This document shows, one piece after another, positions 11,307 to 18,704 of a DNA stretch of 64,000 bases. Numbering within the stretch: the first letter of the stretch is position 1; each line of letters opens with the position of its first letter. Under the pieces are notes generated by a model. That model had not been told where the DNA came from and searched no databases. It saw nothing but the letters and a program-made list of their open reading frames with translations. Source of the DNA: a bacterium. GTDB taxonomy: Bacteria; Oederibacteriota; Muellerivitia; Muellerivitales; Muellerivitaceae. The stretch covers positions 1 to 64,000 of the forward strand of contig DASZRK010000076.1 of NCBI GenBank assembly GCA_035549195.1, written 5' to 3'. Position numbers and translations under genes: made by a program.

Positions 11307-12257
11307 TCAATACCAAAAAAGCAGTCCAAAAATATGGGAATTGGCAATAAAGCCGGAACTTACTTGGGCCGGCCGCCAGGCATATCCGATCTCGTATTCC
11401 AATTTGCCGATGTTGTATCGCAAGGCCGCACCCGCTGAAAATCCTCCGTTCAAATTCCCCTCGTCACTGAACCGGTAACCAATCCGGAGCGCCAAAAGAC
11501 TACGATGCCAATATTCCAATCCGAGGGCCGCTTGGGCCCCCTCGTCGTTGACATAAAAAGCCTCTCCGCCCGCCAAAAGCGTGGACGACGGTGAAACGAT
11601 CAGGGGTTTGGCGATCCCAAAACGGAAGGTCAAAGGTAAGGGATCCTGACCCTGGGGATCAGGTTCATATTGAACCGCCGGTCCTACGTTCTGCACGGCA
11701 ACTGCCAGATCGGTCTCCAAGACCTGCATTTTGAAACCAAGGTCGAAGGCTTGAGTGAACGCCTGCTTATCGCCGAGGATCGAGACGAGGGTCTTAAAGG
11801 ATCCTCCAATGGCCACCGGACCGAATTGCTGGCCGTCCGCGATCGTTACGAGATAATCCTGGACCCCGACCGGTGGATCGGTCGCCAGTACATTTTGAAT
11901 GTCCGGCATGTGGCGGAAAACGACCTGAAACCCAAGATTCCCATAGTCTTTGGTGGGAAGAGCCAAGCTCAAGGACTCGGTTTGGATATCAGCAAAACCT
12001 TGTATATGGTCCAGTCCAAGGCTGTATTTTGAGACCCGTGCCAACCCGGCTGGGTTGTAGTCCATCACATAGACATCATCCCCGAGGGCGGAATAAACAC
12101 CGCCCATAGCCGTCGGGCGAACACCTAAAGGCACTTTCAACAAGTCTCCGCCATTGGTCCCTGCGGTCTGGGCGCACAGGGACGTCGAAAGAAATACCAA
12201 CAGGAGGCCCCAAGTTGTTCCCAAGACAAGATTTTTATCGATCTTTAGTGACGACAT
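11307..12257 (-). CDS. PorV/UPF0164-family outer-membrane protein
   Basis: The 316-residue protein has a signal peptide (cleavage after LCA near residue 29). Next comes the hallmark N-terminal segment of the PorV/UPF0164 family, GVRPTAMGGVYSALGDDVYVMDYNPAGLA, in which GMGG is AMGG and the ADD-NPAGL motif is kept. The remainder alternates aromatic and small residues as in a 14-strand outer-membrane barrel and ends in Tyr. PorV proteins act in type IX secretion or as small-molecule channels; the function here is unknown. The ATG overlaps the stop codon of the upstream barrel gene (TAATG), so the pair is translationally coupled. Confidence 0.8.
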   Translation of the reverse strand: MSSLKIDKNLVLGTTWGLLLVFLSTSLCAQTAGTNGGDLLKVPLGVRPTAMGGVYSALGDDVYVMDYNPAGLARVSKYSLGLDHIQGFADIQTESLSLALPTKDYGNLGFQVVFRHMPDIQNVLATDPPVGVQDYLVTIADGQQFGPVAIGGSFKTLVSILGDKQAFTQAFDLGFKMQVLETDLAVAVQNVGPAVQYEPDPQGQDPLPLTFRFGIAKPLIVSPSSTLLAGGEAFYVNDEGAQAALGLEYWHRSLLALRIGYRFSDEGNLNGGFSAGAALRYNIGKLEYEIGYAWRPAQVSSGFIANSHIFGLLFWY

Positions 12258-16961: not shown

Positions 16962-18704
16962 TCATTTGGTGAGGATGACGATATCAACACGGCGGTTTGT
17001 ATAACGCGCCTCTTCCGTATCCCGGTTGTCCAACGGCGACGAATCCCCATGGCCTCTTGAGTATAGGTTATCGGGAGAGACCCGGCCCTTTTCGACCAAA
17101 TATCGCAGGACCGCGTCAGCACGGTTCTGCGACAAGGTCAGTGCCGTCTTTTCCGGGCCTTCGTCGTAAGCATGCCCTTCGATATAAACCCGGCAATTGG
17201 GATACTTTCGGATGAGCTTCGCGACCTGATCCAAATAGCGCGAGAATCCCTGGCTGATGTTACTGCTTTTTTCGTCGAAGGAAAGACTCGGCACTTTCAC
17301 AGTACCTGACATGCCGATGGGTTGGATCGTCTCGGGGATCACCGGCATTGGAAAGGATTTCGCTTCCATGGTCGCCGAAGCCATCATCGGCATTTCCTTG
17401 GCGTTGATCTGGGCCACTTTGAAAATGGGATCGCTGGCCACGACCTGCTGGCCCCGGACGTCCACCGTCTTGAGGTTGTAGTTAGCGAAAATACCGCCGG
17501 TCACGACGTTCCCGTTGTTGTCCCGCCCATCCCAAGCGATCTGGCGCGGCGGGATCCCTATACCCGAATAGCTTCGAAGGACGTTCCCCTTCGAATCGGT
17601 GATGTCCAGATTCCAGGTCTTGATGTCGGTCCGGGCCTGGGGCTTCAGGTCGAAGGTCGCCTGCTTCAAGGTTCCCGTTTGGTAATCCGAGATCTGGGGC
17701 TTGATCTCCACCGCGACCGCCTTCGGGGCGGGCTCAGCGGCCGGTTGGACCTCCGTTGGTTCGAACCGATAGGTCAGAGAAAACCGATGGGTGTCCCCCA
17801 GGGCGCCGAAAGGGACGAAGGCATAATTGATCTCAAAAGGTGTGTAACGGAACCCGGCCCCGAGTGTCGCCCCTGAGGCGCCACCCAAGTCCTGGTTCAG
17901 GGGGTCCAGACTATAGCCTGCCCGCAAGGCGGCCGCGAACTCCTTCGCCCCCCACCAAAGTTCACCCCCCACATGGACGATCGGGTCGTTATCGATCGGC
18001 TTTTCAAGGTCCACCCCGAGCGAAAAATGGGTCGGATCCTTGGGTTGGAACCGGTAGGCCAGGCCCGCACGATAGACCAAAGGCAGCTTTTCCTGCGACG
18101 AGAACTGGGAAAAGTTGGAGATCTGCCCGACATTCTGGACGGAAAGCCCGATCGAAAATGACCTGTCCTTGGTGAAAAACAAAAGGCCAGCGTCCATGGC
18201 TTCACCGGTAGCGCTATAAGTGATCAAACTACTGGAAATGAACTTTCCACCGATGCCCAAAGCGAAATTGTCCCCAAACAGCTGTCCAAAGCCCAAGGAA
18301 ATGGCGTAATCCGAAGCGCTTCCTGGCGTTGCCAAGGGATCGTTCGTGGAATTAAAGGAAGGCACAAAATCCATGGAGGCCGAAAGCCCCAAAGTACTTC
18401 CGGGTTGCAATGGGATCGCGACCCCACCGAACTCGTAATTCGTGCCGGCGAAGTAGACCATGTGCAAGAGATTCAGTTCGGCCTTGTCCAGCAGGGCCAA
18501 CCCGGCCGTGTTCCAATAGGTGGTGCTGACATCGTCCGCAATGGCCGTAAAGGCTCCGCCCATCCCGGCCCCACGGACTCCCGCTGGGATCTTGAGGAAT
18601 TGGACGCCCGTCGTACTGACGCTATCCGCAAAGACCGAAAATGGGAGCAGGAAAGAAGCAGTAAACCAGAGAGCAAGATGGATTCGGCGCAGGGAGAAAT
18701 TCAA
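16962..18704 (-). CDS. PorV-type barrel fused to FlgD-like Ig and OmpA C-terminal domains
   Basis: The 580-residue protein has a signal peptide (cleavage near VFA-D27) and a PorV/UPF0164 barrel at about 30-325, with IPAGVRGAGMGGAFTAIADD and WNTAGLA. A FlgD-type Ig domain follows at about 340-430 (WDGRDNNGNVVTGGIFANY). A peptidoglycan-binding OmpA domain covers about 465-580 (VYIEGHAYDEG, LSQNRADAVLRYLVEKG, GHGDSSPLDNRDTEEARYTNRRVDIVI). It would span the outer membrane and grip the cell wall. The start is TTG with AGGAAAG upstream. It is first in the envelope cluster and follows a strong promoter. The PorV-Ig-OmpA fusion recalls type IX secretion parts. Confidence 0.85.
   Translation of the reverse strand: MNFSLRRIHLALWFTASFLLPFSVFADSVSTTGVQFLKIPAGVRGAGMGGAFTAIADDVSTTYWNTAGLALLDKAELNLLHMVYFAGTNYEFGGVAIPLQPGSTLGLSASMDFVPSFNSTNDPLATPGSASDYAISLGFGQLFGDNFALGIGGKFISSSLITYSATGEAMDAGLLFFTKDRSFSIGLSVQNVGQISNFSQFSSQEKLPLVYRAGLAYRFQPKDPTHFSLGVDLEKPIDNDPIVHVGGELWWGAKEFAAALRAGYSLDPLNQDLGGASGATLGAGFRYTPFEINYAFVPFGALGDTHRFSLTYRFEPTEVQPAAEPAPKAVAVEIKPQISDYQTGTLKQATFDLKPQARTDIKTWNLDITDSKGNVLRSYSGIGIPPRQIAWDGRDNNGNVVTGGIFANYNLKTVDVRGQQVVASDPIFKVAQINAKEMPMMASATMEAKSFPMPVIPETIQPIGMSGTVKVPSLSFDEKSSNISQGFSRYLDQVAKLIRKYPNCRVYIEGHAYDEGPEKTALTLSQNRADAVLRYLVEKGRVSPDNLYSRGHGDSSPLDNRDTEEARYTNRRVDIVILTK

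What the first reader, a model, noticed from the sequence alone, without database searches (positions are those of the whole stretch)
11307..18704. Envelope cluster resembling a split PorE/PorV module of type IX secretion
Type IX PorE is TPR, PD40 propeller and OmpA in one chain. Here a TPR-PD40 protein is encoded beside a PorV barrel fused to FlgD-like Ig and OmpA domains, with a second PorV, another barrel and a multi-TPR protein in one cluster. The FlgD-like Ig domain is also similar in style to type IX sorting domains. This could be a divergent secretion or surface-attachment apparatus.
Basis: partly seen in the sequence, partly recalled or inferred. Interest (0 to 1): 0.55.

Follow-up and report, generated by a model that had tools for sequence, protein, structure and literature searches.

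The report
Outer-membrane cargo shuttle with periplasmic anchor
A little-known uncultured bacterium outside the Bacteroidota carries the outer-membrane half of a type IX-like protein secretion system, and this gene cluster looks like a rearranged version of the part that receives secreted proteins at the surface and holds the machinery in place.

Summary
The cluster encodes a PorV/PorQ-like barrel fused to FlgD-like Ig and OmpA domains, a TPR-PD40 lipoprotein, a multi-TPR protein, tRNA-Gly, an unassigned protein and a second PorV-family protein. The genome belongs to candidate division FCPU426/Goldbacteria (by relatives).

This genome has 71 places matching T9SS-type C-terminal sorting domains; of 60 matches inspected, 59 end within 25 residues of the stop codon.

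The fusion/TPR-PD40 pair was found side by side in 22 of 45 genomes; in seven, from three families, it lies with SprA in one co-oriented block of 8-11 genes.

Against: 21 of 40 SprA-bearing genomes show no such pair. No GldM was found, GldL only weakly, and no C25 sortase in this genome. The fusion's OmpA lacks PorE's peptidoglycan-binding Asp.

Best reading: a T9SS-like SprA-PorV-CTD system in which PorE is split, its Ig-OmpA half carried by a shuttle-type barrel. Function is inferred.

The parts
16962..18704 (-). PorV/PorQ-family 14-strand FadL-like barrel, then FlgD-like Ig domain, then OmpA-like domain, in one 580-aa chain (TTG start, purine-rich stretch upstream)
   Evidence: start context
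15722..16945 (-). Lipoprotein with TPR helices and a small PD40 (TolB-like) propeller; ATG start 16 nt after the stop of the fusion
13912..15696 (-). Secreted multi-TPR protein (ATG, signal-peptide-like N-terminus)
13786..13860 (-). tRNA-Gly (CCC) inside the cluster
12257..13813 (-). Unassigned secreted protein, perhaps a barrel; reading frame runs through the 3' half of the tRNA gene (possible starts GTG 13813 or ATT 13786)
   Evidence: no family match
11307..12257 (-). Second PorV/PorQ-family protein (316 aa), start overlapping the stop of the gene before it

Best explanation
The genome encodes the outer-membrane half of a type IX-like system: an SprA translocon, PorV/PorQ-type barrels, and cargo with C-terminal Ig-like sorting domains. 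The cluster in the window is a shuttle-and-anchor module of that system. I propose that the barrel of the fusion sits in the outer membrane and, like PorV, takes cargo from SprA by its sorting domain. Its C-terminal Ig-OmpA tail would hang into the periplasm, where a 14-strand barrel with a periplasmic N-terminus ends. The neighbouring TPR-propeller lipoprotein, anchored in the inner leaflet, would bind that tail as TolB binds Pal, so that two chains together form what PorE is in one chain. In P. gingivalis a PorE-PorP (FadL-like barrel)-cargo complex exists (PMC9143113); here the barrel and the OmpA half would be covalently joined. Shown: domains, conserved gene order, SprA, sorting domains at C-termini. 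Inferred: docking, cargo binding, TolB-Pal-like pairing, anchoring.
For: SprA over the NCBI cut-off in this genome (227.4 against 200); a profile of 11 SprA from the phylum finds F. johnsoniae SprA in the PDB at E 5.5e-36. Sorting domains: 41 TIGR04183 matches (20 over cut-off) and 50 matches to an alignment of the C-termini of SprA-adjacent proteins, 71 merged places; of the 60 matches held as loci, 59 end within 25 aa of a stop (48 distinct places). Fusion: closest solved folds are PorV 6h3i_F, Z 32.4, and 8gl6_F, Z 32.0; the best FadL/TodX-type row is 30.7. Synteny: fusion, TPR-PD40 and multi-TPR, with SprA starting 9-11 kb further on the same strand, in G036, G038, G039, G041, G042, G043, G044. 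In the window's family the two orthologues are kept together in 7 of 8 genomes and both missing in the eighth, G024, which has only a distant fusion paralogue. In the eight stretches of this genome read for it, four CTD genes are directly followed by a PorV-family gene, one of these a second PorV-FlgD-OmpA fusion; cargo-then-shuttle order is known for type B cargo (PMC12618676, passages).
Against: 21 of 40 SprA-bearing genomes show no neighbouring pair, G024 (99% complete) among them, and 3 of the 22 with the pair show no SprA (G021, G025, G040). In this genome the cluster is not linked to SprA (contig C76 against C80). GldM 0 of 45, GldL 3 of 45 weak and below cut-off, C25 in 4 of 45 and not here. 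By NCBI's equivalog models the fusion is nearer PorQ (109.1 against 220) than PorV (66.7 against 250), and meets neither, so a shuttle role in the PorV sense is less direct than the fold suggests. The peptidoglycan-contacting Asp of PorE/OmpA is Y, F, P or S in 11 of 11 fusions with an intact OmpA part, Asn is kept in 7 of 11, Arg in 11 of 11; one of these (L088) has an Asp beside the site with a one-residue insertion. TIGR04183 also rings in 3 of 14 control genomes, over cut-off in 1. The propeller looks short (about 14 strands), against five predicted blades in PorE.
Confidence: 0.55

Rival explanations
1. The pair is an outer membrane-cell wall tether, a Tol-Pal-like module (CpoB-like TPR, TolB-like propeller, Pal-like OmpA), that has nothing direct to do with secretion; SprA is a neighbour only.
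For: The best Foldseek match of the TPR-PD40 model is TolB in a TolB/Pal complex, and the OmpA part matches Pal among others. PMC12204202 (passages) argues that PorE itself is a CpoB-TolB-Pal fusion and perhaps an OM tether rather than a T9SS part. 21 of 40 SprA-bearing genomes show no pair.
Against: The pair sits in one co-oriented block with SprA in 7 genomes of three families. The OmpA is on a PorV/PorQ-type barrel. The peptidoglycan-binding Asp is missing. Other TolB-like matches exist in all 45 genomes, none over the curated cut-off, so it is open whether a Tol system is present beside it.
Confidence: 0.25
2. The fusion is a FadL-like uptake porin with an OmpA tail, in an ordinary envelope gene cluster.
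For: PorV belongs to the FadL superfamily; FadL, TodX and CymD rows score Z 26.7-30.7, and in Pfam PorV and Toluene_X are equally weak, both below cut-off.
Against: PorV ranks first by fold, by about 1.7 Z over the next barrel, is the barrel found by the profile among the 60 of 79 PDB rows shown, and the PorV/PorQ subfamily cut-off is passed. The block contains SprA and a CTD protein in relatives.
Confidence: 0.12
3. The barrel is an accessory of the barrel-assembly machine, like BamG of Bacteroidota.
For: Chains of Bacteroidota BAM complexes are listed, Z 25.5-26.4; a SurA/PpiD-like PPIase gene lies divergently beside the fusion in the four family genomes read.
Against: PorV scores 6 Z units higher. 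NCBI's BamG model is listed for the second PorV at E 0.044; the fusion's list is cut at 25 of 49 families, so it cannot be read for it.
Confidence: 0.05

Closest known systems
PorE (PG1058) of Porphyromonas gingivalis
   Same: Lipid-anchored TPR plus TolB-like propeller; Ig-like or CRD domain directly before an OmpA_C-like domain; PorE is found with a FadL-family barrel, PorP, in P. gingivalis (PMC7192894, PMC5053529, PMC9143113, passages).
   Different: Two chains instead of one; the Ig-OmpA half is fused to a PorV/PorQ-type barrel; the Ig is FlgD-like, not CRD; peptidoglycan-binding Asp absent; PorE's curated model not met.
PorV shuttle of T9SS (F. johnsoniae 6H3I chain F)
   Same: Barrel fold, Z 32.4 over 278 residues; NF033709 PorV/PorQ subfamily cut-off passed.
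   Different: PorV equivalog model not met (66.7 against 250 bits), PorQ's is nearer but not met either (109.1 against 220); carries Ig and OmpA domains; the genome has at least 23 matching places (30 of 38 candidates scored).
PorE-PorP-type B cargo complexes / PorE-SprF-cargo operons of F. johnsoniae
   Same: A FadL-like shuttle, a PorE-like protein and CTD cargo encoded or found together (PMC9143113, PMC12618676, passages); here CTD gene, then PorV-family gene, in four tandems, one with an OmpA fusion.
   Different: Barrel is PorV/PorQ-like and in the window fused to OmpA; the CTDs look like type A or FlgD; two tested with the type B model CHU_C are below its cut-off (17.6 and 18.0 against 27).
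Tol-Pal system (TolB, Pal, CpoB)
   Same: Propeller and OmpA partners, TPR lipoprotein.
   Different: TPR and propeller in one chain; Pal-like part on a 14-strand barrel; linked to SprA in relatives.

Membership tests
Type IX secretion system | SprA/Sov translocon | tested here: met
   TIGR04189 227.4 bits against 200 for the whole ORF. One search, which scores pieces, lists 3 of 45 genomes over cut-off and this one not among them; 40 of 45 match at E<=0.001. Pfam SprA_N is below cut-off (19.8 against 27).
Type IX secretion system | PorV-type shuttle | tested here: inconclusive
   NF033709 PorV/PorQ subfamily over cut-off for both window proteins, and best fold PorV for the fusion; the narrower equivalogs PorV NF033710 (66.7 and 29.5 against 250) and PorQ NF033711 (109.1 and 65.8 against 220) are not met, Pfam PorV is below cut-off.
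Type IX secretion system | Cargo with C-terminal sorting domain | tested here: met
   41 TIGR04183 matches, 20 over cut-off; all 30 of them that were held as loci end within 25 aa of the stop. Control: rings in 3 of 14 named genomes, over cut-off in 1.
Type IX secretion system | GldL/PorL-GldM/PorM motor | tested here: inconclusive
   GldM 0 of 45; GldL 3 of 45 weak, none over cut-off, none in this genome. The GldM profile rings in only 1 of 7 outside genomes that have SprA over cut-off, so it is narrow.
Type IX secretion system | PorK/PorN ring, SprE/PorW, SprT | not tested
Type IX secretion system | PorU sortase (C25 peptidase), for systems that process type A cargo | tested here: not met
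   PF01364: 0 in this genome, 4 of 45 in the phylum.
PorE | TPR, propeller, Ig-like domain and OmpA in one lipoprotein | tested here: not met
   Domains split over two genes.
PorE | Asp, Asn, Arg that bind the peptidoglycan peptide | tested here: not met
   Asp 0 of 11, Asn 7 of 11, Arg 11 of 11 fusions with an intact OmpA part; 2 of 13 aligned rows are cut short and left out.
PorE | NCBI model NF052230 | tested here: not met
   Fusion 37.3 against 600 bits, OmpA part only; the TPR-PD40 protein is not listed for it at E<=1.
PorV (as a translocon subunit) | Docking at the lateral opening of SprA and CTD binding | not testable with these tools
Tol-Pal | Propeller protein over the TolB cut-off | tested here: not met
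   The TPR-PD40 protein scores 31.6 against 343; in the phylum TIGR02800 matches 45 of 45 genomes at E<=0.001 but 0 of 45 over cut-off. Pal was not searched genome-wide.

The most novel reading that the evidence does not exclude
A type IX-like export route outside the FCB group that works without the known GldLM motor and C25 sortase, in which cargo is not released but stays on a receiver barrel that is itself tied by its own periplasmic tail. The internal FlgD-like Ig, similar in style to the cargo's sorting domain, would be a built-in pseudo-signal that keeps the empty barrel or the translocon closed.
Probability: 0.15. Interest if true: 0.85.

Novelty: new variant of a known kind. Interest (0 to 1): 0.62.

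Why it matters
[quoted passage not shown] Here SprA matches occur in 40 of 45 genomes of the FCPU426/Goldbacteria phylum, the window's genome has dozens of sorting-domain proteins, and SprA-like frames below the cut-off occur in two of three Elusimicrobia genomes tested. Goldbacteria are known for cellulases studied after sorting cells bound to cellulose (PMC7031533, abstract start and passages); a route for surface export could explain how such enzymes reach their substrate, though no cellulase with such a domain was identified here. The split PorE and the barrel-OmpA fusion make the open question of what PorE does testable: which half binds shuttle, cargo and cell wall.

Tried and rejected
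Single-sequence search of SprA against the PDB gave only two weak Fn3-region hits; the profile of 11 sequences gave SprA first, and many Fn3 proteins below it through its N-terminal domains. Whether the fusion occurs outside the phylum: the one genome-contig scan gave 41 loci; in 8 the match reaches the OmpA end (7 with an intact frame, L098 broken), in 33 it stops in the PorV part. The eight contigs have exactly the lengths of contigs in the phylum sample, so they are very probably the same records. That scan used one N-terminal pattern and is no proof of absence elsewhere. The idea that the second PorV and the unassigned protein belong to the conserved module was dropped: they recur only in family genomes among the loci read. 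A PorW identity of the multi-TPR protein was dropped (generic TPR score). In one search minus-strand loci were read in the wrong orientation; one search repeats the count correctly and only one search is used. The number of genomes with the adjacent pair (22 of 45) was put together by hand; the match lists are truncated, so a pair could have been missed. In G021 only the propeller half of the TPR-PD40 protein is recognised; in G041 and G043 the fusion frame is broken by the assembly. A 544-aa protein in G001 (f3, L070) has TPR and PD40 matches but was not seen beside a fusion; a 408-aa TPR protein in G031 (f11, L069) has no propeller match. The 'four tandems' come from eight stretches chosen because they held CTD or PorV matches; the rest of the genome was not counted. 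Taxonomy: 'Candidatus Goldbacteria' is not a name in the local taxonomy. The statement that this is not in print rests on six searches of an open-access library and one for the domain fusion, of which listings and passages were read; subscription papers and preprints are not held there. On re-reading the calls I lowered the best explanation from a planned 0.58 to 0.55 and raised the porin rival from 0.10 to 0.12, because 21 of 40 SprA-bearing genomes show no pair, and because Pfam does not tell PorV from Toluene_X and NCBI's models put the fusion nearer PorQ than PorV.
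Full report
WHAT IS THERE. The window is contig C76 of a 3.2 Mb, 97.9% complete genome in 80 contigs. The named cluster lies on the minus strand. In transcription order it encodes: a 580-aa chain of PorV/PorQ-like barrel, FlgD-like Ig and OmpA; a TPR-PD40 protein with a lipobox; a multi-TPR protein; tRNA-Gly; an unassigned secreted protein; and a second PorV-family protein. A gene that I recognise as ribosomal protein L21 follows (recall; not searched). The first three genes are 16 and 25 nt apart (starts). Pfam alone would not call the barrel PorV: UPF0164 passes, PorV and Toluene_X do not. NCBI's PorV/PorQ subfamily model passes, and its narrower models put the fusion nearer PorQ (109.1 against 220) than PorV (66.7 against 250), meeting neither.

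FOLDS. The fusion model (13-row alignment, mean pLDDT 70.7, pTM 0.49) shows 14 barrel strands, an Ig-like sandwich and an OmpA-like domain. Foldseek ranks two PorV chains first, E 1.8e-13 and 1.5e-12, then OmpA-like domains and FadL. VIA-align gives PorV Z 32.4 (rmsd 2.7 over 278 residues), the best FadL-type barrel 30.7, chains of Bacteroidota BAM complexes 25.5-26.4 and OmpA-like domains up to 18.9. The pTM is low, so the placement of the domains relative to each other is not known. The TPR-PD40 model (pLDDT 86.1) has TPR-like helices at about 29-202 and a small propeller at about 208-400. Foldseek's best match is TolB from a TolB/Pal complex, E 1.2e-8; by VIA-align TolB (Z 15.5) is tied with unrelated WD40 propellers, so this shows a propeller, not a TolB.

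WHOSE GENOME. A scan of named genomes with the fusion alignment gave 41 loci. The eight whose match reaches the OmpA end include records named candidate division FCPU426 (L096, L097, L098, L103) and Candidatus Goldbacteria (L106); L095, L099 and L102 bear other or no taxon names. PMC7031533 (passages) treats FCPU426 and Goldbacteria as one phylum. In the remaining 33 the match is to the PorV part only.

THE REFUTER. A 1,960-aa ORF on contig C80 (L002:4092-9974) scores 227.4 bits against TIGR04189, cut-off 200. A profile from 11 such proteins finds F. johnsoniae SprA at E 5.5e-36. In the phylum 40 of 45 genomes match, 24 of the 25 that are at least 90% complete and at most 5% contaminated; only 3 of 45 are over cut-off when scored in pieces. 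Directly downstream lies a 1,473-aa Fn3-rich protein whose C-terminus resembles FlgD and sorting domains, below their cut-offs.

CARGO SIGNALS. A profile of the C-termini of SprA-adjacent proteins finds 50 places in this genome; TIGR04183 finds 41, 20 over the cut-off; together 71 places, 19 found by both. Sixty matches (the best 30 of each list, 48 distinct places) were held as loci: 59 end within 25 aa of the stop codon. This position is what a sorting signal needs. Caution: TIGR04183 rings in 3 of 14 control genomes, over cut-off in 1. The profile's best solved matches are FlgD (E 6.1e-5), with PorZ at E 0.13 and PorU at 0.34, the last two not significant. In eight stretches read for it, four CTD genes are followed at once by a PorV-family gene (L208, L209, L210, L213); in L208 the follower is a second PorV-FlgD-OmpA fusion.

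CONSERVATION OF THE MODULE. Full-length orthologues of the fusion (68-74% identity) occur in six of the seven other genomes of the window's family, each with the TPR-PD40 gene next to it; the seventh, G024, lacks both orthologues, keeps SprA and has a distant fusion paralogue (32%). Over the phylum the neighbouring pair was found in 22 of 45 genomes, in families f1, f9, f10 and f12-f16 (hand count); 19 of the 22 have SprA matches, and 21 of the 40 SprA-bearing genomes show no pair. PorV-FlgD-OmpA fusions without a TPR-PD40 neighbour in the 1.5 kb held occur in f6-f8 as well. In seven genomes (f14: G036; f15: G038, G039; f16: G041-G044) the order is fusion, TPR-PD40, multi-TPR, LacI-type regulator, O-antigen-ligase-like protein, glycosyltransferase 9, a single-TM protein, in three of them (G036, G041, G042) a chemoreceptor-like protein, then SprA, all on one strand, with short extra ORFs in G038 and G039; where the stretch reaches far enough an Fn3-type protein follows (domain names from one representative each). 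In G033 (f13) both half-blocks exist on separate contigs. In the window's family SprA stands elsewhere, behind a two-component pair, in the five genomes read.

WHAT IS MISSING. GldM: 0 of 45; a control on outside genomes rang in 1 of 7, though all seven have SprA over cut-off, so the profile is narrow. GldL: 3 of 45, weak, not this genome. C25 peptidase: 4 of 45, not this genome. PorK, PorN, SprE and SprT were not searched. TolB-like matches occur in all 45 genomes, none over cut-off. The energy source of this system is therefore unknown.

MECHANISM, WITH STATUS. Shown: the domains, the conserved order, SprA, C-terminal position of sorting domains, cargo-barrel gene tandems. From published work (passages): substrate binds PorV loops in the SprA pore and is thought to leave with PorV (PMC10994853); PorE binds a FadL-like barrel, PorP, and has a peptidoglycan-binding end (PMC9143113, PMC7192894). 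Inferred: the fusion is a shuttle or fixed receiver whose tail, with the TPR-propeller lipoprotein, does the job of PorE. The split falls between propeller and Ig-OmpA, that is, at a PorE domain boundary. The Ig domain aligns to the phylum's sorting-domain profile with 59.7% probability, against 1.4% for the OmpA control. Against a simple cell-wall anchor: the peptidoglycan-contacting Asp is replaced in 11 of 11 fusions with an intact OmpA part, so the tail may bind another partner, for which the lipoprotein's propeller is the nearest candidate (TolB-Pal analogy, untested).

ALTERNATIVE. PMC12204202 (passages) argues that PorE itself is a Tol-Pal-like tether and not a true T9SS part. On that view this pair is a tether as well. 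The SprA-linked block and the PorV/PorQ-type barrel speak for a tie to secretion; the many SprA-bearing genomes without the pair speak for a separate or accessory role. I give 0.55 to the first and 0.25 to the second.

NOVELTY. Searches for T9SS or SprA with Goldbacteria, FCPU426 or Elusimicrobia showed no paper describing it there in the listings and passages that I saw; PMC7031533 holds 'type IX secretion' once, in a reference title. The parts are known kinds; their partition between chains and the phylum appear new. I call it a new variant of a known kind.

Noticed in passing
window 12257-13860: The gene after tRNA-Gly has no ATG, GTG or TTG suited to its signal peptide between the tRNA end and that peptide; its frame is open through the 3' half of the tRNA in four genomes (window, L083, L084, L088). 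Translation may start at a GTG inside the tRNA gene or at an ATT at its end (other starts were checked by eye for the window only).
   Followed up: partly
L002:2030-4058; L085, L086, L087, L089: A LytS-like histidine kinase and LytTR response regulator pair lies directly upstream of SprA in the five genomes of the window's family that were read (domains tested on L002 only). It differs from PorX/PorY as far as I recall.
   Followed up: no
L078:12742-14388, L081:7389-9008, L092:12614-14248, L094:11191-12822: A methyl-accepting chemotaxis-like protein directly before SprA in four relatives, next to a single-TM protein of unknown family (domain tested on L078 only).
   Followed up: no
L101, L104 (genomes G053, G054): Elusimicrobia genomes with SprA-like frames of 1,795 and 1,874 aa, below the curated cut-off; a third, G052, has none.
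   Followed up: no
L208:5910-7964 (G000 contig C24): A second PorV-FlgD-OmpA fusion, directly behind a CTD-bearing protein.
   Followed up: partly
L208:11939-13123: Protein with a choice-of-anchor L domain (227.4 bits) and a FlgD-like C-terminus; from recall, that domain comes with varied sorting signals.
   Followed up: no
L075:4193-6955, L080:1999-4533, L092:232-2727: Large secreted proteins with Thr/Pro-rich linkers and a sorting-domain-like C-terminus upstream of the block; only L092's C-terminus matches (TIGR04183, 20 bits, below cut-off), the rest has no Pfam or NCBIfam match.
   Followed up: partly
window 1-2000: Long low-complexity stretch with strong skew, which looks like the Thr-rich linker of a protein on the minus strand, cut by the contig end.
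   Followed up: no
window 18947-20413: SurA/PpiD-like peptidyl-prolyl isomerase divergent from the fusion, kept in the four family genomes read.
   Followed up: no
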